Origin: Anaerobacillus isosaccharinicus
Lineage (GTDB): Bacteria > Bacillota > Bacilli > Bacillales > Anaerobacillaceae
Length of the DNA stretch: 64,000 nucleotides
Assembly (NCBI RefSeq): GCF_001866075.3
Contig: NZ_CP063356.1
Span: 4,950,164-5,014,163 of the forward strand
Direction: 5' to 3'
Shown in pieces: positions 9,355 to 63,635 of the stretch. The notes under the pieces are model-generated. The model was not told the DNA's origin. It saw only the letters and a program-made list of their open reading frames with translations, and ran no database searches. A program made the position numbers and the translations under genes. Numbering within the stretch: the stretch's first letter is position 1; each line of letters starts with the position of its first letter.

Positions 9355-12300
9355 TTATTCCACATTAAAATATCGTCCTTCGGGATGGGCAAAAACCATT
9401 GCAGATACAGACGCTTCTGGGTCCATCATATATTCCTCTGTCAATTCAATCCCAATTTCCACTGGGTTTAATAGTCCAAAGAGTTTCTTCTGATCTGCTA
9501 GCTCAGGGCAAGCTGGATATCCATACGATACCCTAACTCCTTGGTACCGTGCTGAAAATCTATCTTGCATAGTAAGGTCTGGATCATCAGGTATTCCAAG
9601 TGAATTTCTCATTAAATGGTGTAGATGCTCTGCAAAAGCTTCTGCTAATTCTAGAGCTAATGCTTGAAGAAGATGACTTCTTAAGTAGTCTCCTTTTTCC
9701 TTCCATTCGGTAGACAATTCCCTAACCCCTAATCCTGCTGTAACAACAAAAAAACCAACATAATCAATTTCCCCACTTTCTTTTGGGCGAATAAAGTCTG
9801 CTAAACATAAATGTGGGGCTTTTCTTTGACGAGGAAACGTAAACCGTTCAATTTCCTTCGAATAGTCATTTGGATCATAAATGATGATATCATTTCCTTC
9901 TGATTGAGCAGGAAAAAATTGATAAACCCCTCTAGCTTTAAGCCATTCATTTTCTACAATTTCTTGGAACAACTCATCTGTTTTTTCTTTTAACTGGACG
10001 GCCTTTTCATTTCCTTCCCTTATTAAACGCTCCACCTTCCCTTTTAGACCTAAATGTTTTCCTAACAGGGTTTGAATATTAATATATGGCTTAATATGCG
10101 ATAACCTATAATCTAAAAATGTACGTTTTTTCAGATCACTTGGAATAGCGACCTTATGATTTGTTGAAACGTCTGAGCGACTTGGTATTACCTCATCTTC
10201 GAGTTCAACATTTTCTTCTAATTGAGCATTTTCACTAACTTCAATTTCTGGTTTTGCAAGTACTTTTATCTTTGTTCCATCTTTGTGAAAAAGCTGATTA
10301 GCTAGTTCTAAACCATTCATTGCATCTTTTGCGTAAAGTACATTCCCACCATATTGTTGTTGAATTTTCGTTTCAGTAAATTTCCTTGTCAAAGCTGCTC
10401 CACCGACTAAAATCGGGATCGAAATTTGTTGCTCCTTTAAATCAGTTGCAGTTAACACCATTTGTTGCGCAGATTTCACTAATAAACCTGACAAACCTAT
10501 TGCATCCGGATTTTCTTTTTTAATCGCTTCAATTAATTGGTTTGACGTAACTTTTATGCCAAGATTAACAACTTTGAAACCGTTATTACTTAAAATAATT
10601 TCAACTAGATTTTTTCCAATATCATGAACGTCACCTTTAACAGTAGCTAGGAGAATTTTTCCTTTACCATTATCATCTTTCTTTTCCATAAACTGTTCTA
10701 AAAATTGTACTGAAGCTTTCATTACTTCAGCACTTTGTAGAACTTCTGCAACAATAAGCTCATTATTATTAAACAACTTACCTACCTCGTCCATTCCAGC
10801 CATCAACGGACCATTGATAACCGCTAAAGGGGTCTCATACTTTTGTAGTGCTAGTTCAAGATCTGGGACTAACCCTTCTTTTGTTCCTTCGATAATGTAG
10901 CTTTGGAGACGTTCTTCTAACGTTAAGTTCAGTAGTGGTTTCTTATCTTCTTTCTTTTTACCACGATAAAAAGCGGTGAACTCAGCTAATACTTCATCAG
11001 CTGTTTCAAACAAAACTTTTTCAGCTAAAATTCGTTCTTCTTCTTTTATTGAAGCAAAACGTTCTAGCTTTTCAGTATTGACAATCGCATAGTCAAGTCC
11101 TGCTTGTGTACAATGATAAAGAAACACAGAATTTAAAATTTCTCGGCCGACAGGAGGAAGTCCAAACGAGACATTACTTACACCTAAAATTGTTAAACAT
11201 TGTGGAAGCTTTTCTTTAATCAGACGAATTCCTTCTACTGTAGCTTTAGCAGAGCCAATATATTGTTCATCACCGGTTCCAACTGGGAATACAAGTGGAT
11301 CAAAAATAATATCTTGCGGTCTTACACCGTAGCGGCTCACAAGCAAGTCATACGATCTTAACGCAACTTCAAGTTTTCGTTCTGCCGTTACCGCCATACC
11401 TATTTCATCAATTGTTCCTACAACAACTGCTGCTCCGTAGCGATGAATAATCGGAACAACACTTTCAAACCTTTCTTCGCCATCCTCTAAGTTTATCGAG
11501 TTGATTACTGCTTTTCCTTGACAGTAGGTTAAAGCTTTCTCAAGAACCTTTTCATCAGTTGAATCAATCATTAGTGGAACCTTCACTTTATTTACAACGT
11601 ATGGCAAAAAATTCTCCATATCACAGACTTCTTCACTATCAGGGTCAGCTAAACAGATATCAATAATGTGCGCCCCTTTTTTCACTTGTGCTCGGGCAAT
11701 TTCTGAAGCCTCTTCAAATTTACCTTCTTTGATTAAGACTTTAAATTTTTTCGAACCAATAACGTTTGTTCGTTCCCCAACTAAAAGAGGGCGCATTGTT
11801 TCATCATAAATGAACGGCTCTATCCCAGAGAGTGCATGGGGATGCTCGCCTGCAAGTTGCCTTGGCTTTAGGCCTTCTACTGCTTCGCGAATTGCTTTAA
11901 TATGTTCCGGTGTTGTTCCACAGCACCCACCGACGACATTTAACCACCCTTTTTGAGCAAATTGCTTTAGCTTTCGTGCTAACATTTCAGGTGATTCATG
12001 ATAATGGCCTTCTTCATCTGGTAATCCGGCATTTGGAAAACAAATGACAGCTGTTGAAGAGAGACTTGCTAGTGAACGAAGGTGATCTTGCATAAATTCA
12101 GGTCCTGTAGCACAATTCAGGCCAACAACAACAGGTTTCATATGTTCAATTGATAGATAAAAGGCTTCGATGTTTTGTCCTGCTAGTGTAGTTCCCATCG
12201 GTTCAATCGTTCCTGAAATCATTAATGGTACTCTGATTGCTAGTTTTTCAAATGCTTTTTCAATACCTATATAAGCCGCCTTGACGTTTCTAGTATCTTG

Positions 12301-17038: not shown

Positions 17039-17195
17039 AAACTTCTTCTAAAATAAGAAGAAGTCGCCGCTAGCAAATACCTTCTTCTTATCTTTCAAGT
17101 TTTCAAAAAAACTTGATGGATTTAGCACCTGACCTTGTTAGGCTGGTTGCTGAGATTTCATAGGGCCACTTCCCTCCATCTCTCGCGATAAGAAT
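17039..17195 (-). promoter_or_regulatory. S-box (SAM-I) riboswitch of the met operon
   Basis: On the minus strand, CTTATCGCGAGAGATGGAGG, then GGCCCTATGAA, CAGCAACC and GTCAGGTGCTAAATCC are the conserved SAM-I elements. P1 is formed by CTTATC (about 17187-17192) and GATAAG (about 17087-17092). Directly downstream, AAGAAGAAG ... CTTCTTCTT (about 17052-17090) forms the terminator and overlaps the 3' side of P1, so an antiterminator is displaced when SAM binds. Expected effect: high SAM stops transcription of metI-metC-yitJ-metH. Confidence 0.97.
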
Positions 17196-41256: not shown

Positions 41257-41560
41257 TACAATACTCCCCCTTTAAAACAACGAATGTGTAGGCTAATGGT
41301 AAAAACCAATTTTTGTTACTACCTCAAACTAATCTTTATGCATATTAGCTCTCGTTTATGAATGGTTTCTTGTCATAGCCAGGGGAGCCTTGAATTGATT
41401 TAAAACAGAAAGAGGCCAATATTGGCCTCTTTTACTTTTATGGGAAATAGTCACTTATGATTATTCTAACAATAAGCTTCTTACCATCCTGTATTTACTT
41501 TCACAAGCATTCTACATTCTACATTCTACATTCTACATTCTACATTCTACATTCTACATT
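41257..41560. other. Gap between M14 gene and hisJ-like gene, with terminator and heptamer array
   Basis: Contains the hisJ-side terminator (41409-41432) and the 3' half of the heptamer array (41508-41563). The M14 promoter must lie close to 41270-41340. No further gene is visible. Confidence 0.5.
41409..41432. terminator. Perfect palindrome terminator after the hisJ-like gene
   Basis: A 24-bp perfect palindrome, AAAGAGGCCAAT joined to ATTGGCCTCTTT, with T-rich flanks. It serves as minus-strand terminator about 130 bp past the hisJ stop. Confidence 0.8.
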
Positions 41561-41563
41561 CTA
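41508..41563. repeat. (CATTCTA)x8 heptamer array overlapping a stop codon
   Basis: Eight perfect copies of CATTCTA (TAGAATG on the minus strand) occupy 56 bp. The last three bases (41561-41563, CTA) are the TAG stop codon of the hisJ-like gene, so the array is the gene's immediate 3' UTR. Confidence 0.95.
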
Positions 41564-42373
41564 CCCCAACGGAACTTCTTTTCGCTCGCCTTTTTCGAAA
41601 GTCATGATTGTTGAATAACCTACACTTTTGGCTAACTCAATAGCTTTATCAAAGTCTTTTCCTACATCTTCAGGTACGTGGGCATCTGATGATAGGACAA
41701 TAGGAATCCCTTTGTTATAACATAGTTGTAATAGTCGTGGATCAGGGTAGAGTTGTTCCACTTGTTTTCGAAGTCCTGCTGTACTTATCTCAACACAAGT
41801 TTTAGAATTAGCAAGGGCGGTAGTAGCTCTTTCATACTGTGCTAGCAGAAAATCTTCATCTGTTGGAATGTAGTTGAAGATTTTTACTAAGTCAATATGT
41901 CCAATAATATCAAATAAATTTGATTCAGCTAGTGTAACAACTTGATCGAAATACCTAGTGTATGTTTCTTTTAAATCACGAAGGTCCCACTCGTGCTTGT
42001 ACTCTCCTAAATCAATGCCAAATTCATCGATCCAATGAATTGAACCAATAACGTAATCAAAATCATAGCCTTGAATAAATTGTGCCATTTCCTCATGTTT
42101 CCCTGGGGTATAATCCATCTCAATCGACATTTTTACATCAATGTGAGCATCCCATGCTTGTTGAAATAGCTTCACATAATCCTCCATGTCGTAATATCTG
42201 CGTTCATTGACCCACGGATTACTTAAAATATTTCTTGTTTGATAGAAATGATAGGCGTGTTCAGAGATACCAAAATGTCCAATTCCTTTTGCTCTTGCTT
42301 GATCTGTAAATTGTTTTAAATAATCAAGAGTCAACGTACCTCTTTCAAGATGATTATGATAATCTGTTAACAT
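41561..42373 (-). CDS. hisJ: PHP-domain histidinol-phosphatase-like phosphoesterase
   Basis: A 270-residue PHP protein: MLTDYHNHLERG (first HxH), SEHAY, VIGSIHWID, IIGHIDL and LSSDAHVPEDVG supply the metal ligands. Best guess is histidinol-phosphatase of the HisJ/HisK class, the ninth step of histidine synthesis; no other his gene is nearby, so another phosphate ester remains possible. ATG at 42373 follows GGAGGAGC; a TTG upstream is less likely. The stop codon is part of a heptamer repeat array. Confidence 0.82.
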   Translation of the reverse strand: MLTDYHNHLERGTLTLDYLKQFTDQARAKGIGHFGISEHAYHFYQTRNILSNPWVNERRYYDMEDYVKLFQQAWDAHIDVKMSIEMDYTPGKHEEMAQFIQGYDFDYVIGSIHWIDEFGIDLGEYKHEWDLRDLKETYTRYFDQVVTLAESNLFDIIGHIDLVKIFNYIPTDEDFLLAQYERATTALANSKTCVEISTAGLRKQVEQLYPDPRLLQLCYNKGIPIVLSSDAHVPEDVGKDFDKAIELAKSVGYSTIMTFEKGERKEVPLG

Positions 42374-55400: not shown

Positions 55401-55483
55401 GGTTAGTCAGATATATGCAAAGTCATAAAAAAACAACTATGAACATAACCGCTTGACCTTTTCCTCGAAGGCTTCACATCTAT

Positions 55484-55648
55484 TCTTTAAGGCAGGTCTC
55501 CTGACTTACGCATTCACAAATGTTTCTCCTTCCCATCATATGGACAGTGGATAAATAAAACATTCTAGCGTTTTACAGTGGCGGGACCGTGCTGGATTTA
55601 CACCAGCTTCCCTATTAACACTTCACCTAAATAAAGTGACCTTAAAGA
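55484..55648 (-). promoter_or_regulatory. Cobalamin riboswitch aptamer
   Basis: P1 is TCTTTAAGG / CCTTAAAGA (55640-55648 with 55484-55492). On the minus strand the aptamer contains GGGAAGCTGGTGTAAATCC, GCCACTGT and the B12 box AGTCAGGAGACCTGCC. It precedes an 11-gene corrinoid uptake and salvage operon, so binding of adenosylcobalamin should reduce expression of all of them. Confidence 0.97.
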
Positions 55649-55706
55649 TGTATGATTGATTTACTAATCCTATTATACATAATTAATCCTATTTGAGAAC
55701 AGCATT

Positions 55707-55776: not shown

Positions 55777-56298
55777 ATGGGAGTAGAAGAACATCGAAAA
55801 GAAGCACCGAAATCTGTTAATGTTATGATTATCACTGTTTCAGATACGAGAACAGAAGAAACAGATAAAAGCGGACAGCTAATAAAAGATTTATTATCAG
55901 AAAATGGTAGCTACAATGTTGTTGATTATCATATTGTTAAAGACGAATATACACAAATTCAATCGTTAATTCGTGAGGCGTCTGAACGTCCAGAGGTTGA
56001 AGCAGTCTTACTTAACGGAGGTACTGGAATTACATTTAGAGATACTACATATGAAGCTGTAAGAGACATGCTAGATAAAGAAATGCCTGGTTTCGGAGAG
56101 ATTTTCCGTTACTTAAGCTATGCTGAAGACATCGGACCAGCGGCTATTTTAAGCAGAGCAATTGCCGGTGTACGTGGGGCAACAGCTATATTTTCCATGC
56201 CAGGATCTTCTGGCGCAGTGAAACTTGCCATGAACAAACTAATCGTTCCAGAATTAGCACATGTTATGCGTGAGATTTATAAGGACGCAAAAAAATAA
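55777..56298 (+). CDS. moaB: Molybdenum cofactor biosynthesis protein MoaB
   Basis: A 173-residue MogA/MoaB-family protein: VMIITVSDTRTEETDKSGQ, LNGGTGITFRDTTYEA and MPGFGEIFRYLSYAEDIGPA with MPGSSGAV. It adenylylates molybdopterin before metal insertion. It stands alone on the plus strand between the B12 operon and resE; no other moa gene is close. ATG after GGAGG. Confidence 0.93.
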   Translation: MGVEEHRKEAPKSVNVMIITVSDTRTEETDKSGQLIKDLLSENGSYNVVDYHIVKDEYTQIQSLIREASERPEVEAVLLNGGTGITFRDTTYEAVRDMLDKEMPGFGEIFRYLSYAEDIGPAAILSRAIAGVRGATAIFSMPGSSGAVKLAMNKLIVPELAHVMREIYKDAKK

Positions 56299-56341
56299 AA
56301 AGAGAAGAAAAATTCCATCAAGGAATTTTTCTTCTCTTTTT
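56297..56341. terminator. Strong terminator after moaB
   Basis: Perfect 20-bp stem AAAAAGAGAAGAAAAATTCC / complement with loop ATCAA, starting at the moaB stop. Its right edge touches heptamer-repeat element A. Confidence 0.93.
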
Positions 56342-56446
56342 TAATGTAAAATTTAAAATGTAGAATGTAAAATTGACGAAAGTCTCGCTTCGAAGCGTTT
56401 CTTTCAACATTCAACATTTTACACTCTACATCCTACATTCTAAATT
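56342..56446. repeat. Heptamer-arm hairpin element, copy A
   Basis: Left arm of TAAAATG/TAGAATG-like heptamers (from AATGTAAAATTTAAAATGTA on), core CGAAAGTCTCGCTTCGAAGCG, right arm of the inverse (ACATTCAACATTTTACA and onward to TACATTCTAAATT). The two arms can pair over about 35 bp. Related copies lie at 60416 and 63541. Confidence 0.85.
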
Positions 56447-56484: not shown

Positions 56485-58269
56485 TTATTCTTCATTTTTC
56501 GAAGGAATAAAAAAGGAAAATGTCGTTCCTTCGTCTAATTTGCTATGGACTGAAACGTGACCGTTATGGGCTTCGACGATATTTTTAACAATTGCTAACC
56601 CTAGTCCTGTCCCTGATCTTCCACGAGTTCTAGCCTTATCTGCTTTATAAAAGCGTTCAAATACAAATGGCAAATCTTCTTCAGGAATTCCTGAACCAGT
56701 ATCACGTATATCAAATTTAATTCCATCTCTAAGTGGTGAAACGACTAAAGTTACCGTTCCTTGATCACTTGTATGGCGCATTGCATTATCAATTAAATTG
56801 GTTAATACTTGCTCAATACGATCTGGATCAACCATTATTACATCTTCAACTACAGCAATTTCAGCTTTTAGCTCTATATTTAGATCCTTCGCCATACCTT
56901 GGAATTTTCGTAATACTCTTCTCGCGAATTCTCTAATATTAATTGGTTCAATATTTAGTTGAATGTGACCAGCTTCCATTCTTGCCAGATCTAAAAGTTC
57001 GTTTACAAGGCGGCCCATTCTTAGCGATTCGTCGTAAATAATTTGAGCCAATTCTTTCATTTCTTCTTCCGAACCTGCCACATCATCGATAATTGCTTCA
57101 CTATATCCTTGAAGCATAGCTATTGGTGTGCGCAGTTCATGTGAAACGTTGGCGATGAAGTCTTTTCGTAATTTATCATGCAAGCGCTCTTCAGTCATAT
57201 CACGAAGGACAGCTACAGCTCCCCTGACAAAGTTCTCGTCATAAAGAGGTGTCATTAATACAACCCATGTTCGTCCTTGAACGTCCACTTCCGCCATCTG
57301 CTCTTTCTCAACGGCTACAACTTGTTGAAATAGTTTTTTTATAGCTTTTGGTAAATCATCTGTAAGGTCGGTACTCTCAACACTTTGCTCAAAATGCCAC
57401 GCTTGAATAAATTGCTTAGCAGGTGGATTTGTAACAACAATTGAACCTTTTCGGTCTAATGTAATAACTCCGTCTGCCATACTACTTAGAATTCTCGATA
57501 ATTGTTCTTTTTCTTGATTTAGTGCCGTTAAATTCGTATTGAGAACTCGTCCCATACGATTAAAAGCCATTGCCAGTGAACCGATCTCGTCTCGTGTTAA
57601 GATCGGTACTTTCGTATCGAAATTTCCTTTTGCTACTTCTAAAGATGCTTGACGCATCTTCCTTAGCGGTGCTGTAATACGAGTTGATAAGAAAAAGGCA
57701 AAGATCGTTGTTAAAACAATGGCAATTCCAGCACCTAAAAAGATAATATTTTTTGTTTGGGAAGCGGCTTCTTCAACAACTTCTAAATATTGATAAACAT
57801 ATAGAACTCCTGTACGATTTTGAACAAGTTCGACAGGCATTCCAACGACTAAGACTTCATTATGAATTTGCTCCCCATTTAAAAGGAATGGAAAGTCTCC
57901 CCTTGTAATGACAACATCTTTATTTGTAATTACTTTGGATAACTCTGGATCTGTCTGGAATAACTCTACTGGGATTTTTTCATTCTCGTATGGATAATAC
58001 CAAAACTCGTCCCCATCTAAGACTAAGAGCAATTTCATCGTATAATTATCAATAATCCGCTTAGTTGTAGAAAGAGCAGCTTCCTCAGTTTCATATTCCT
58101 CTAAAATTGAGGCAATCATAATCGCATGATTTGTTAGCTGCTCCTCAGCTTGGTCAGTATGAAACTTTTCAAAGTATTGTAACAGCATAATTGTTAGTAT
58201 CGTTAAAACAACCATTACCAACGATAAAATGGTAAACCAAAGCTTCCCTACTACACTTCTCCAAAACAT
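56485..58269 (-). CDS. resE: Sensor histidine kinase ResE
   Basis: A 594-residue membrane kinase: TM1 about 12-35, extracytoplasmic sensor to about 165, TM2 about 170-190, HAMP (about 190-245), PAS (about 255-370), HisKA with [19 protein letters not shown] (phospho-His) and HATPase with [10 protein letters not shown] and [14 protein letters not shown]. In B. subtilis ResE controls ResD for respiration, anaerobic growth and cytochrome biogenesis. Start overlaps resD stop (TAATG). Confidence 0.94.
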
Positions 58270-59214: not shown

Positions 59215-60399
59215 TTACGCATACGAATGCAAACCTGCAATAACTAAGTTCACGAAAATTAAGTTAAACATAATAATTGCAAAGCCGATGACACATAACC
59301 ATGCTGATCTTTCTCCAAGCCAGCCACGCGATAATCGCAAATGAAGATATGCAGCGTAAAATAAAAACGTGATTAATGCCCAAACCTCTTTTGGATCCCA
59401 CGCCCAGAAACGTGTCCATGCTATTTGTGCCCAAATCATTGCAAATATTAATCCACCTAAAGTAAAGATTGGAAATCCGATTGCAATCGCACGGTAGCTA
59501 ATTTCATCTGCAACTTGTGGACTCACGCCACGAAGCAAGGGTTGAATTAATTCTCCTACTTTTCTTCTCGTTATAAGTCGAATAAAATAGTATAAAACTA
59601 ATCCAGAAAATAAAGACCAAATGACTGTATTTAAATCGCCACTTTTAATATTAGGATGAACATTAAAGAAAGGAGACATTCTTCCTTCTGTCAGAAGGAC
59701 GCTTTCGTTAGGTCCTACAAGAGCTGGTAGGTTATAAGCCATTTCAGTCTCGATTCCTTTTTCGTTTATATAAGAAAATTGAGCTTCGTAATTTAGCGCA
59801 TTAAAGGTAGAAGTAATTAAGATAAAGCCAATAACACTTATGAGCGAATACAAGACAAATTCAATTGCTTTCACTTGCTTGTCATTCTTCTTGAAATCAA
59901 TAACTCTTAATAAATAAATTAATCCACCTGCGAAACCTATTGCTAATATCCCTTGTCCTAGGGCCGTAGTAATTACGTGGATTTTCAACCAATAACTTTG
60001 CAAGGCAGGAATTAGTGGTGAAATCTCACTTGGAAACATCGATGCGTAGGCAATAATTAGCATGACAATTGGCATCGTAATAAAACCTAATACGTTCAGT
60101 TTGTAGATAGGATAAATAATGACGAAAGCAAGAGCCATCATAATCCCAAAGAAAGTAGTGTATTCAAATAAATTACTAACAGGAGCATGCCCTGCAGCAA
60201 TCCACCTTGTGATAAAATAACCCAGTGAAAATAAAAGCGCAATAACAGATGATATATAGCCTAATAGCGCAGATTTGTTTTTTTCTTCACCAGCTTTATT
60301 TTTAAACTTCTTTCCTGTTAACGACACAGCAAAAAGAATTGTAGAAGCTAAATAAACATAAAAGGCTATTAATAATAAATTACTACTTAACTCAGCCAC
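59215..60399 (-). CDS. resC: Cytochrome c biogenesis protein ResC (CcsA type)
   Basis: A 394-residue heme-handling membrane protein of system II cytochrome c maturation. The Trp-rich motif WTRFWAWDPKEVWALITFL is near the C terminus and several heme-ligand His lie in loops (for example GHAPVSNLFEYTTFFG and WLKIHVITTALGQG). About eight to nine membrane segments. Start GTG at 60399 with AGGAGG eight bases upstream. It follows resB at 109 bp with a heptamer element between. Confidence 0.92.
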   Translation of the reverse strand: MAELSSNLLLIAFYVYLASTILFAVSLTGKKFKNKAGEEKNKSALLGYISSVIALLFSLGYFITRWIAAGHAPVSNLFEYTTFFGIMMALAFVIIYPIYKLNVLGFITMPIVMLIIAYASMFPSEISPLIPALQSYWLKIHVITTALGQGILAIGFAGGLIYLLRVIDFKKNDKQVKAIEFVLYSLISVIGFILITSTFNALNYEAQFSYINEKGIETEMAYNLPALVGPNESVLLTEGRMSPFFNVHPNIKSGDLNTVIWSLFSGLVLYYFIRLITRRKVGELIQPLLRGVSPQVADEISYRAIAIGFPIFTLGGLIFAMIWAQIAWTRFWAWDPKEVWALITFLFYAAYLHLRLSRGWLGERSAWLCVIGFAIIMFNLIFVNLVIAGLHSYA

Positions 60400-60415: not shown

Positions 60416-60516
60416 ATAATGTAAAATGTAAAATTTATAATGTAGAATAAACGAAAGTAATGCTTCGAAGATTAGTCCTCACTAATTCTACATTTTACAT
60501 TCTTAATTCTACATTT
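60416..60516. repeat. Heptamer-arm hairpin element, copy B, inside the res operon
   Basis: Left arm ATAATGTAAAATGTAAAATT and onward, core ACGAAAGTAATGCTTCGAAGA, right arm ending TTCTACATT. The element occupies the resB-resC gap, ends beyond the TAG stop of resB (60509-60511) and starts 4 bp from the resC SD. The core GAAAGT and GCTTCGAAG are shared with copies A and C. Confidence 0.85.
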
Positions 60517-62128
60517 TTTTCTCTTCTTCCTCGACCTTATCAACTGGCATTGTAAGTTGGGTGGATGTGACGATTGTTTCAATATCTTTTTTCAAGCCAT
60601 ACCAGTTTTTGTTTGTATGGGCTGATACCCAAAGTTCATCGTTTATCTTTTGGATCCAAATACGACGATGTGTCCAATACATCCCCTGGGTTAGACCGAT
60701 CATAAAAATAATCCCACCAACAATTAAAATACCTAATGTATGGTCTTTGCGGACAACTAAGTTCGTCACATGGTTCATATCAATGTCAACAAACCGCATC
60801 CGATGTGTATTTTCCCCGTTTATATCTTGATTCGTTTGAATCCCAACAAAGGAGATTTCACCTGCTTCATTTTCAGGAGTGATCATCTTAAAAATGAAAG
60901 CTGGATTATTTGGTATTCTTGATCTAGATGCAGGAGTCCGGTTGTCATCAAAATGAAAATCAGGGAAGTATTCAATTATTTCTATCAAGTAGCCGTTACC
61001 TAAATCGTAAATAGAACTAGGGTCATACGTAGAAACATCAATTCTACCTAAACGCTCACCTGTTTTTAACTCTTCTAATTCAAAACTCATTTGACTTATT
61101 TCATTTTGCTTAAAGGCGTATTGATATAAGGCAAAACTATTGAACTTAAATGGGTCATTCACTCGAATGTCATGTCTAGCAACTTCCACTAATTCTGGTT
61201 CTCTTCCAACGACACCGTCGTCAACTCTCTTGAACAACGTAGCCGAAGTTTGATATGTTTTCACAACAGGGCTTCCTGCCCTTACTAATGCGTCCTGGAA
61301 CCTGGCGTCTGCATCATCATAAAAATCAACAGTAAACTTGTCGTTCCTAAGAAAAAATTCTCCATCTGTACCACGGACAACAACTGTTTCTCCTTCTCTA
61401 ACCCAAATGTTATCATCAACATACATGCCAGGGAAGAATCGAAGCATGCAACCTATTAAAAAGACAATTAAGCCAATATGATTTACATAAGGGCCCCATC
61501 TAGAAAAGCGTCCTTTCTCAGCAACGATATTTCCCTCTTCTTCGAATATTTCATATTTCTTTGATTTTAACAGTTGTTTTGCTTGATCAATTGTTTCAGC
61601 CTGATTATCAACCTTTGAAACACCATGAACTCGTTGTCTTTGCAAAAAACCTTCATGACGAGTAACACGCTGTGTTTTTAAAGCCCTGTGTAGCGGAACC
61701 ACACGATCTAAACTACAAATAATTAACGAAACTCCTAACGATGCAATTAAAAGCATGTACCACCAAGAGCTGTATAAATTATGAAAACCAAATGAATAAT
61801 ATAATTTCCCTAAAGTTCCGTACTCATCTTGATAAAATAAACTTGGATTAGATCCTGGTGGAATGTAAAATTCCTGTGGGAAAATCGTTCCAATACTTGA
61901 TGCTAATAGCGTTATTACGATAATCCATATTCCTACCTTTACACTTGAAAAGAAGTTCCAAATCTTATCGATAATCGTTTTATTATACGATTGCGAACGT
62001 CTAGCTACACCTTCATACCGCATATCCAGCAATTCTTTTCCTTCTTCAAAAAAAGGTTTTCCGCATGATTCGCAAATAACTGTGCCGTATGGATTTACAT
62101 GTCCACACTCACATTTTACTTTTTCCAT
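60509..62128 (-). CDS. resB: Cytochrome c biogenesis protein ResB
   Basis: A 539-residue protein, partner of ResC in the system II heme lyase. N terminus has a zinc-ribbon (CECGHVNPYGTVICESCG) followed by membrane segments (about 70-90, 130-150, 210-230) and a large extracytoplasmic domain before a last membrane segment near 465-490. The final codons (KKM then TAG) lie inside a heptamer-repeat element, so the C terminus has probably been changed by it. Confidence 0.92.
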   Translation of the reverse strand: MEKVKCECGHVNPYGTVICESCGKPFFEEGKELLDMRYEGVARRSQSYNKTIIDKIWNFFSSVKVGIWIIVITLLASSIGTIFPQEFYIPPGSNPSLFYQDEYGTLGKLYYSFGFHNLYSSWWYMLLIASLGVSLIICSLDRVVPLHRALKTQRVTRHEGFLQRQRVHGVSKVDNQAETIDQAKQLLKSKKYEIFEEEGNIVAEKGRFSRWGPYVNHIGLIVFLIGCMLRFFPGMYVDDNIWVREGETVVVRGTDGEFFLRNDKFTVDFYDDADARFQDALVRAGSPVVKTYQTSATLFKRVDDGVVGREPELVEVARHDIRVNDPFKFNSFALYQYAFKQNEISQMSFELEELKTGERLGRIDVSTYDPSSIYDLGNGYLIEIIEYFPDFHFDDNRTPASRSRIPNNPAFIFKMITPENEAGEISFVGIQTNQDINGENTHRMRFVDIDMNHVTNLVVRKDHTLGILIVGGIIFMIGLTQGMYWTHRRIWIQKINDELWVSAHTNKNWYGLKKDIETIVTSTQLTMPVDKVEEEEKKM

Positions 62129-62744: not shown

Positions 62745-63476
62745 TTAATTGTTCTTCTTTTTTTCTGCCATTTCACGTAACTGCTTTACCTCATGTGGTC
62801 GTAGCTCTCTTGCTTCTCCAGTGTTTAAACCTTTTAACGTTAAAAACCCATACATTTCACGTTTAAGCTTTAAAACTGGGTGGCCAATTGCCTCAAACAT
62901 GCGGCGAACTTGGCGATTTTTACCTTCATGAATTGAAATTTCAATAATTGAAGTTCCCGTTTTTGGATTACCAGACACAAATTTCACTCTAGCAGGAGCC
63001 GTTTTCCCATCTTCTAACATGATGCCTCTTTCAAGCAATTTTAGTTTTTCACGACTAGGAACACCTTGAACTTTTGCTACGTACATTTTTGTCACTTTAT
63101 ATTTAGGGTGCATGAGAATATTAGCGAACTCACCATCATTTGTTAGCAACAACAAGCCCGAAGTATCATAATCTAATCTCCCTACTGGAAACAGGCGAAA
63201 TTCATTACTAAAAAAGTCAGTTACTACTTTTCTCCCTTTATCATCACTTACACTAGAAATAACTCCTGTTGGTTTATACAATATATAATAAACAGGCTCT
63301 TCCCGGTCAATAGGGACCCGATCTACTTCTATTTTATCTTTTCTAGGTGTTACCTTAGTTCCTAACTCTGTAACAACCTCACCATTCACTGTTACTCTAC
63401 CTTCACTAATAAGCTCTTCTGCTTTCCTTCTTGATGCAACCCCTGCTTGAGCAATTACTTTTTGTAAACGTTCCAT
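62745..63476 (-). CDS. rluB: 23S rRNA pseudouridine synthase RluB
   Basis: A 243-residue enzyme: N-terminal S4 domain (MERLQKVIAQAGVASRRKAE, residues about 1-60) and RsuA/RluB-type catalytic domain with GRLDYDTSGLLLLTNDG (catalytic Asp). Modifies 23S rRNA at the position usually numbered 2605. Start ATG at 63476 with GAGGTGG, not the upstream Met. It follows spmB, as in Bacillus. Confidence 0.94.
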   Translation of the reverse strand: MERLQKVIAQAGVASRRKAEELISEGRVTVNGEVVTELGTKVTPRKDKIEVDRVPIDREEPVYYILYKPTGVISSVSDDKGRKVVTDFFSNEFRLFPVGRLDYDTSGLLLLTNDGEFANILMHPKYKVTKMYVAKVQGVPSREKLKLLERGIMLEDGKTAPARVKFVSGNPKTGTSIIEISIHEGKNRQVRRMFEAIGHPVLKLKREMYGFLTLKGLNTGEARELRPHEVKQLREMAEKKKNN

Positions 63477-63540
63477 ACCTTCCACCTCATACATATCTTA
63501 AAATTTTTTTATACCATTTTTCAAGGAAACTGACTTCCTT

Positions 63541-63635
63541 AATGTAAAATGTAAAATGTAGAATGTTTTGAAAGTGTTGCCTCGAAGCTTTCCTTTCATC
63601 TAATTCTACATTCTAAATTTTTCATTCTACATTTA
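63541..63635. repeat. Heptamer-arm hairpin element, copy C
   Basis: Left arm AATGTAAAATGTAAAATGTA and onward, core GAAAGTGTTGCCTCGAAGC, right arm to CATTCTACATTT. It lies between rluB and spmB. CTCGAAG in the core differs from the CTTCGAAG of copies A and B by one base. Confidence 0.85.

What the first reader, a model, noticed from the sequence alone, without database searches (positions are those of the whole stretch)
56342..56446. Dispersed family of hairpin elements with heptamer arms and a shared GCTTCGAAG core
Three intergenic elements of about 95-105 bp (56342-56446, 60416-60516, 63541-63635) have the same layout: arms made of short A/T heptamers (AATGTAA, AATGTAG), a core GAAAGT-N2-4-GC[T/C]TCGAAG, then the inverse arm. 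Arms vary by whole heptamers, so they behave like a microsatellite while the core stays constant. I know of no named element with this form. It may be a MITE-like repeat, an RNA-processing or attenuation element, or a protein-binding site.
Basis: partly seen in the sequence, partly recalled or inferred. Interest (0 to 1): 0.75.

Follow-up and report, generated by a model that had tools for sequence, protein, structure and literature searches.

The report
Fixed-address heptamer-armed intergenic repeat elements
Bacteria of the genus Anaerobacillus carry many copies of a small repeated DNA element squeezed between genes; in the species compared most copies tested sit at the same places, yet their seven-letter repeat arms have been rewritten differently from species to species by an unknown process.

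Summary
The window lies in a 5.23 Mb Anaerobacillus genome. In 864 kb examined (mostly element-rich stretches) there are 102 core-bearing copies. The canonical element is about 98 bp: four 7-bp iterons (ARTKWWR, usually AATGTAR) plus a degenerate fifth, a 28-bp dyad core (GWRRGYNNN-GCTTCGAAGC-NNNRCYYWC), then the inverse arm. Copies fill operon-internal gaps: 56 of 103 facing stop codons lie within 10 bp of an element edge.

Addresses are conserved between species: 15 of 17 hold an element in relative G001, 16 of 17 in G003, 0 of 17 in basal G002. Yet iteron words are species-specific in both arms (AATGTAR, AATTATG, AGTTTTG), and core spacers keep no orthologous similarity. No two of 102 copies are near-identical, target duplication is not established, and mirrored iterons avoid identity. 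This argues against an RNA hairpin, a plain microsatellite and recent MITE transposition. Best reading: old, DNA-level, protein-recognised repeats whose arms evolve in concert; the protein, the exchange mechanism and any function are inferred. Similar inverted heptad arrays with other cores occur in 7 of 397 other genomes sampled from the phylum.

The parts
56342..56446 (.). Element 1: left arm AATGTAA-type iterons, 28-bp dyad core, inverse right arm; convergent gap between a moaB-like ORF (55777-56298, +) and the resE-like ORF (56485-58269, -), directly after a separate terminator-like hairpin (56297-56341). Gene names are recalled from the sequence and gene order, not from a family search
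56378..56405 (.). 28-bp dyad core of element 1 (GAAAGTCTC GCTTCGAAGC GTTTCTTTC)
60416..60516 (.). Element 2: between the resB-like (60509-62128, -) and resC-like (59215-60399, -) ORFs of a codirectional res gene run; a right-arm iteron supplies the TAG stop codon of the resB-like ORF (60509-60511)
60453..60480 (.). 28-bp core of element 2 (right half-site degenerate)
63541..63635 (.). Element 3: gap upstream of the rluB-like ORF (62745-63494, -), codirectional with the next gene
63570..63597 (.). 28-bp core of element 3 (GCCTCGAAGC variant)
41507..41564 (.). One-sided array of about eight TTCTACA units, read as a decayed element that kept one expanded arm (a half-core-like sequence precedes it)
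   Evidence: the reading as a decayed copy is inference

Best explanation
A family of old, non-coding, DNA-level repeat elements: a 28-bp dyad-symmetric core, most simply the site of a dimeric DNA-binding protein, lies between two inward-facing arrays of about four 7-bp iterons. SHOWN: the anatomy, high copy number, niche between stop codon and ribosome-binding site, fixed addresses across species, species-specific arm types, lack of recent copying in this genome, loss of orthologous similarity in core spacers. INFERRED: (a) the element was established after the basal species G002 split off; (b) copies are inherited at their addresses; (c) arms are homogenised and replaced one at a time by slippage plus exchange between copies (hybrid elements in G001), so that the genome-wide iteron drifts or tracks the specificity of a trans-acting binder; (d) that binder recognises the core and/or the heptads, in the way the ribbon-helix-helix protein Omega of pSM19035 reads 7-bp repeats. 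Whether the host benefits is open; long retention in three species and near-absence in G004, which branches inside the element-bearing group, would fit a partner-dependent function that is lost with the partner.
For: 102 core-bearing copies among 127 detector hits in 864 kb (blocks chosen mostly by earlier hits, so not a density estimate). Canonical 4+1 iterons per arm in 25 of 47 left and 25 of 47 right arms. Dyad core with conserved half-sites but NNN not complementary beyond chance. 56 of 103 facing stop codons within 10 bp of the element edge, 35 of 95 start codons 11-30 bp away. Addresses with an element (read by me, placed by script): G001 15 of 17, G003 16 of 17, G006 7 of 8 reached, G002 0 of 17; conversely 27 of 29 element addresses seen in the G001 and G003 stretches fall on a G000 address. 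A detector blind to the heptamer's letters finds 0 arrays in 64 kb of G002 loci and 0 in 879 kb of 79 Bacillaceae loci, 11 in 80 kb of G001, 12 in 76 kb of G003. Arm types differ by species in both arms; both-side changes in 87 cells against 45.3 in shuffles, covariation score 0.294 against 0.161, falling when slid by 1-3 columns. One-arm hybrids in G001. Core orientation ignores transcription, 37 to 44. No near-identical pair among 102 copies: best 89% overall; top core similarities at the column-shuffle level except one neighbouring pair. Arm relatedness exceeds independence (39 pairs at 92% or more against 14.3, sd 5.2) without core relatedness (r = -0.14, 37 copies). In pSM19035 at least four contiguous heptads are needed for full activity (PMC9499535, passages).
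Against: No binding protein was found: the Omega family PF07764 gave 0 of 7 genus genomes, but it rang in no control genome either, so this shows nothing. Two of the five covariation measures do not exceed the shuffles: pairs with a change on both sides 18 against 17.5 (248 of 500 shuffles reach it) and further pair types 29 against 33.1 (492 of 500). Orthologous core spacers are less alike (0.263, 0.287 and 0.393 for the three species pairs over the four positions on each side nearest the centre motif) than 4-fold degenerate sites (0.47-0.53), which simple vertical inheritance does not predict; replacement or local hypermutation is needed. Elements can be lost (G001 lacks two of the three window addresses), so single copies are dispensable. 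Depletion from divergent gaps is not significant (7 of 99 against 62 of 454, P = 0.09). G002 is basal with only 78.7/77 support. In G002 the loose detector gave one short core-less hit (L259:12562-12633), and the counterpart of 930547 holds a one-sided CTTTCCA-type array, so G002 may not be wholly free of heptad arrays.
Confidence: 0.42

Rival explanations
1. Mobile MITE/REPIN-like elements mobilised in trans, which preferentially insert into or beside existing copies; each species' own wave replaces old copies at the same slots.
For: Dispersed high copy number; whole-element tandem copies in G003 (L253:11626-11944) and tandem or nested ones in G005 (L265:13879-14078, L264:3816-4047), and a two-core compound in G000 (254194-254360); fast turnover of arms and core spacers at fixed addresses; a weak excess of 4-bp flank repeats.
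Against: No near-identical dispersed copies among 102 in G000. No clear target duplication: k=4 gave 14 observed, 7.8 expected, P = 0.012, one of seven lengths tried; the other six are null. Y1_Tnp genes (PF01797) do not track the elements: 7 matches in G002, which has no R1 match, and 0 in element-rich G005 (80% complete); no element at E<=0.01 with R2 in the two 20-kb stretches around two of the six G000 Y1_Tnp matches. One-arm hybrids are not expected from whole-element replacement.
Confidence: 0.25
2. Transcribed intercistronic RNA hairpin (stability, processing, attenuation or translational insulation), selected for structure with free sequence.
For: 81 of 99 copies in codirectional gaps, though such gaps are also 340 of 454 of the background; many copies between stop codon and start; the three window copies fold better than shuffles (z -3.0 to -8.5); arm cells covary between species in three of five measures.
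Against: 18 of 99 lie in convergent or divergent gaps; core orientation is random; core positions 5-17 from the centre show no significant covariation; within the AATGTAR type mirrored iterons are less identical than chance (0.8035 against 0.8392, sd 0.0067, 51 copies), also when G-U pairs are allowed on either strand; none of the three overlaps a terminator-like site.
Confidence: 0.15
3. Passive heptanucleotide microsatellites around a chance palindrome.
For: [quoted passage not shown] AATTATG expanded to 28 units in G001; heptamer indels between G005 and G006.
Against: Canonical 4+1 iteron number in G000, adjacent iterons less alike than chance (0.149 against 0.227, sd 0.027), a shared dyad core in over 100 copies, same arm type on both sides (r = 0.84 for the AGT fraction over 40 copies), fixed addresses.
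Confidence: 0.08

Closest known systems
REP / BIME / REPIN elements with RAYT transposases (PMC3116915, abstract and outline seen)
   Same: Short palindromic, intergenic, high-copy, inverted organisation, hairpin-forming.
   Different: Arms are 7-bp iteron arrays, not short tagged palindromes; no RAYT link in the tests made; addresses shared across species while sequence is renewed.
Heptanucleotide direct repeats, e.g. TAACTGA in Beggiatoaceae, Cyanobacteria, Bacteroidetes (PMC4679880: abstract, passages, sections 3 and 10 seen)
   Same: 7-bp intergenic units beside start or stop codons; 7-nt indels between two Cyanothece strains at matching positions; the reverse complement can be rotated to AGTTATC, which shares the ART start (my own comparison).
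   Different: Those are direct repeats (one inverted case in 170 sets in the main genome studied); here two inverted arrays flank a conserved dyad core.
Four-unit heptanucleotide elements of Geobacter metallireducens (PMC2700814, four passages seen)
   Same: Dispersed family (49 places) built on four tandem heptanucleotides, found in intergenic places and called putative regulatory elements.
   Different: GC-rich unit (GGGACCG or GGACCGG), also inside genes; the passages mention no inverted second array and no shared central dyad.
parS heptads of pSM19035 bound by the ribbon-helix-helix protein Omega (PMC9499535, passages seen)
   Same: Contiguous 7-bp non-palindromic units; at least four contiguous needed for full activity; direct or inverted order tolerated.
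   Different: Six plasmid sites over promoters, WATCACW consensus; no central dyad mentioned in the passages; Omega family not detected in this genus (uninformative test).
MITEs and Bacillus repeats such as bcr1 (recalled; search listings only)
   Same: Non-autonomous-looking intergenic repeats with inverted arms.
   Different: No parental transposon ends identified, target duplication not established, no near-identical copies found.

Membership tests
REPIN/RAYT system | A RAYT-type Y1 transposase gene flanked by the repeats | tested here: not met
   G000 Y1_Tnp matches at 535170 and 1200773: the two 20-kb stretches around them (L225, L226) hold no element at E<=0.01 with R2; the loose detector gave one weak hit in L226. 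The other four G000 matches were not surveyed.
REPIN/RAYT system | Repeats and Y1 transposase co-occur across genomes | tested here: not met
   G002: 7 Y1 matches, 0 R1 matches; G005: 0 Y1 matches, 65 R1 matches (the cap); G005 is only 80% complete
MITE | Target-site duplication | tested here: inconclusive
   62 copies with two clean arms; only k=4 above chance (14 against 7.8, P 0.012), six other lengths null
MITE | Near-identical dispersed copies | tested here: not met
   Best pair 89% among 102 copies of G000
MITE | Empty sites in close strains | not tested
   No second strain of the species was available
Structured RNA family (Rfam) | Match above a family's gathering score | tested here: not met
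   No overlap at gathering; best weak overlap psm_mec_RNA 33.9 bits against 85
Structured RNA | Compensatory changes in the helix at fixed register | tested here: inconclusive
   Three of five measures exceed shuffles across arm types, two do not; absent or reversed within one type
Heptanucleotide tandem repeats (LSSR) | Tandem 7-nt units changing by whole units | tested here: met
   Arms are tandem 7-nt units; 7-nt changes between G005 and G006; long arrays in G001
Omega/parS heptad site | Bound by a ribbon-helix-helix ParB | not testable with these tools
   PF07764: 0 of 7, and it rang in no control genome

The most novel reading that the evidence does not exclude
A modular, phylum-wide class of nucleoprotein or mobile element: inward-facing arrays of ART-starting heptads around an exchangeable palindromic core (GCTTCGAAGC in Anaerobacillus, GGTTCGCGC..GCGCGAACC in one distant genome), kept at fixed operon-internal addresses while a dedicated trans-acting system rewrites the heptads of all copies to a new species-specific word, arm by arm.
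Probability: 0.15. Interest if true: 0.85.

Novelty: new variant of a known kind. Interest (0 to 1): 0.6.

Why it matters
In the usual picture (recalled), dispersed bacterial repeats are either mobile (addresses change, sequence stays) or functional sites (both stay). Here addresses stay and sequence is renewed genome-wide per species, which looks like concerted evolution of about a hundred or more unlinked loci in a bacterium. It gives a natural system, with clean arm-type markers and one-arm hybrids, for asking how unlinked short repeats are homogenised and whether a DNA-binding protein drives it. It also joins heptanucleotide repeats, described in the papers seen as direct repeats or slippage products, to a defined two-armed element.

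Tried and rejected
Intrinsic terminator: none of the three overlaps a terminator-like site, and at 56342 a separate terminator-like hairpin precedes the element. Known riboswitch or sRNA: none over the elements. RAYT mobilisation: see membership test. Reverse transcriptase as a possible heptamer writer: RVT_1 is in 7 of 7 genus genomes including G002, so it does not discriminate. TTAA target duplication: suspected from flanks, not supported. Hairpin-mediated arm-to-arm correction: predicts mirrored iterons to match, the opposite was found. Plasmid or phage origin: one element with flanks gave no blastn match in 72,556 plasmid or 50,697 phage records (BLAST's low-complexity filter was on). Literature: six iteron strings are in no paper of the library; the listed results of searches with heptamer, Anaerobacillus, MITE and bcr1 terms show no description of this element in titles and abstract starts; most of those texts were not read. 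Copy number: one search gives 126 core-bearing copies for the genome by an estimate biased by how blocks were chosen; my own arithmetic on the same figures reaches about 150, so it is a rough figure.

Dropped rows: 25 of 127 detector hits had no recognisable core and were left out of core and context counts; the detector gives 1-8 chance hits per 464 kb in ten Markov shuffles and 7 in the reversed sequence, so a few hits, with weak cores too, will be chance. Two copies at block edges and one called inside an ORF were left out of the 99. The covariation count used 89 of 102, the mirrored-iteron test 51 of the 56 with two clean arms, the arm-versus-core test 37.

Full report
WHAT WAS CHECKED. 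A detector that asks only for inward-facing arrays of the 7-bp consensus ARTKWWR finds exactly these three in the window, none in 20 Markov shuffles and none in the reversed sequence. The window lies at 4950164-5014163 of a single-contig genome of 5,227,144 bases. Its genus contains G005, whose first contig has the same length and region as NZ_MLQQ01000001.1 of Anaerobacillus arseniciselenatis DSM 15340, so the window is taken to be Anaerobacillus; the species is not known.

COPY NUMBER AND RANGE. The core pattern with up to 2 mismatches occurs 110 times against 20 for the reversed control. In 864 kb of this genome (the 64-kb window, 740 kb in 20-kb stretches chosen around hits, 60 kb around two Y1_Tnp genes and one background stretch) there are 127 detector hits, 102 with a recognisable core. 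Places cluster along the chromosome. R1 matched 5 of 6 other species of the genus and 0 of 54 other genomes of the order. Model R2 (23 copies from five species, 34 pairs) matched 0 of 397 other genomes of the class sample and 7 of 397 of the phylum sample; these runs used strict filters and the two R2 runs scored only the 10 best candidates per genome. Of 80 named resC loci, only A. arseniciselenatis carries the elements; a detector blind to the heptamer's letters finds none in the other 79 (879 kb).

ANATOMY. The canonical element is about 98 bp, fourteen heptads: four ARTKWWR iterons, a fifth of form AATKNNN, a 28-bp dyad core GWRRGYNNNGCTTCGAAGCNNNRCYYWC, and the inverse. 25 of 47 left arms and 25 of 47 right arms have the 4+1 form. 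The NNN positions are not complementary beyond chance; none of the 13 positions from 5 to 17 off the centre departs from shuffling at P<0.05 (89 copies). The two arms share their type (r = 0.84 for the AGT fraction, 40 copies), but within the AATGTAR type mirrored iterons are less identical than in permuted pairs (0.8035 against 0.8392, sd 0.0067, 51 copies), and neighbouring iterons within an arm also differ more than chance (0.149 against 0.227, sd 0.027). My inference is that perfect palindromes and perfect repeats are unstable or counter-selected, and that pairing is not what is maintained. Across species and arm types, cells with changes on both sides of the arm pairs exceed shuffles (87 against 45.3), as do the covariation score and the share of paired cells; the number of pairs with such changes (18 against 17.5) and of pair types (29 against 33.1) do not.

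NICHE. Of 99 placed copies, 81 lie in codirectional, 11 in convergent and 7 in divergent gaps; background gaps of 60 bp or more are 340, 52 and 62, so the mix is close to the background (divergent P = 0.09). Copies abut genes: 56 of 103 facing stop codons are within 10 bp of the element edge and 35 of 95 start codons are 11-30 bp away, leaving room for a Shine-Dalgarno sequence. Element 2 lies in a run of res-like genes and supplies the TAG stop of the resB-like ORF. Core orientation does not follow transcription (37 same, 44 opposite, P = 0.51). Genes were called by a simple script, so start codons are approximate; res, moaB and rluB names are recalled.

FIXED ADDRESSES, REWRITTEN ARMS. Two 20-kb stretches with 8 and 6 elements and the window's three addresses were compared with relatives. 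Element present: G001 15 of 17, G003 16 of 17 (one without core), G006 7 of 8 reached, G002 0 of 17; G005 has all three window addresses. In the other direction 27 of 29 element addresses in the G001 and G003 stretches fall on a G000 address (two extra in G003). With the script's gene calls, 7 of 14 gaps in one stretch are occupied, so hitting the same seven at random has a chance of about 3e-4. Arm types differ in both arms: AATGTAR in G000, mostly AATTATG in G001, AGTTTTG or AGTGTAG in G003, AGTTTTG or AATTTAA/AATGTAC-like in G005 and G006. G000 itself has minority AGTGTAR and AATTATG copies. G001 holds hybrids with an AATGTAG arm on one side and AATTATG on the other (counterparts of 926971, 930547, 935605; L269:12069; L270:5042 mixed within one arm). 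Between the closer pair G005 and G006 (79-92% DNA identity, mostly 85-86%) the resB-resC and rluB addresses show recognisably the same core with whole-heptamer indels. A protein tree puts G002 at the base (support 78.7/77), then G005+G006, then G004, then G000, G001 and G003; G004, inside the element-bearing group, has only 7 R1 matches. G002 has no R1 match, no R2 match in 44 kb and no letter-blind array in 64 kb of partly overlapping loci, but one short core-less detector hit (L259:12562-12633) and one one-sided CTTTCCA-type array (counterpart of 930547).

TURNOVER. Orthologous cores among G000, G001 and G003 are no more alike than non-orthologous ones (0.358 against 0.356, 10 sites; 0.373 against 0.368, 10 sites; 0.341 against 0.350, 7 sites), also over the four positions on each side nearest the centre motif (0.263, 0.287, 0.393 against 0.318, 0.379, 0.312), while 4-fold degenerate sites of neighbouring genes keep 0.47-0.53. 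Codon bias may hold those sites back, so this is suggestive. Within G000 no two of 102 copies are near-identical (best 89%); the top core similarities equal column-shuffled expectation except for one pair 2.4 kb apart. Arms are related beyond independence (39 pairs at 92% or more against 14.3, sd 5.2) with no matching core relation (r = -0.14), tested on 37 copies. So arms seem to be homogenised between loci separately from cores.

WIDER CLASS. The distant phylum matches are inverted arrays of other ART-starting heptads: AGTGGAG (G598), AATTAAG (G539), AGTTTTG (G550), AATTGAC (G622, G483), AGTGATG (G806), AATTTTG (G662). Several stand beside a Shine-Dalgarno-like run. None of those shown has GCTTCGAAGC; three in G598 (L288, L291, L300) enclose a palindrome GGTTCGCGC..GCGCGAACC. 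The R2 model is itself biased to ART heptads, so this consensus is partly imposed.

MECHANISM. Best supported is an old DNA-level element recognised by protein, with concerted arm evolution. Shown: anatomy, niche, addresses, arm types, lack of recent copying in G000. Inferred: the binder, the exchange mechanism, any host function. Works like: heptad arrays such as parS of pSM19035, where at least four contiguous heptads are needed. Membership in REPIN, MITE, Rfam or Omega/parS families is not established. Rivals are listed with their tests.

VERDICT. A real, large family, apparently undescribed as far as the searches show; new variant of a known kind (intergenic palindromic repeat with heptanucleotide arms), with an unusual evolutionary signature.

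Noticed in passing
window 55474-55659 (-) and 17085-17194 (-): Cobalamin riboswitch and SAM riboswitch (Rfam gathering hits).
   Followed up: no
window 41507-41564: One-sided array of about eight TTCTACA units after a half-core-like sequence; probably a decayed element.
   Followed up: partly
L269 around 12069-12191 (G001): Left arm expanded to 28 AATTATG-like units next to an AATGTAG right arm.
   Followed up: partly
L253:11626-11944 (G003), the counterpart of G000 932939: Three tandem, nearly identical whole elements.
   Followed up: partly
G004:C16 158837-159090: The resB- and resC-like genes appear to be missing in G004 between otherwise syntenic res genes.
   Followed up: no
G598 loci L288, L291, L300: ART-heptad arms enclose a different shared palindrome (GGTTCGCGC..GCGCGAACC), suggesting exchangeable cores.
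   Followed up: partly
G005 counterparts of the window's first and third addresses; G002 counterpart of 932939; G003 counterpart of 926971: Other short palindromic repeats (GTGTCAGACAC-like; GGGGTCTGACCCCC-like) sit in the same or neighbouring gaps.
   Followed up: no
G002 counterpart of 930547 and L259:12562-12633: A one-sided CTTTCCA-type heptad array and a short core-less AGTTTTG-type hairpin in the otherwise element-poor G002.
   Followed up: partly
G000 3.5-4.75 Mb: Only two R1 places in this arc while other arcs are dense (histogram and coordinates).
   Followed up: no
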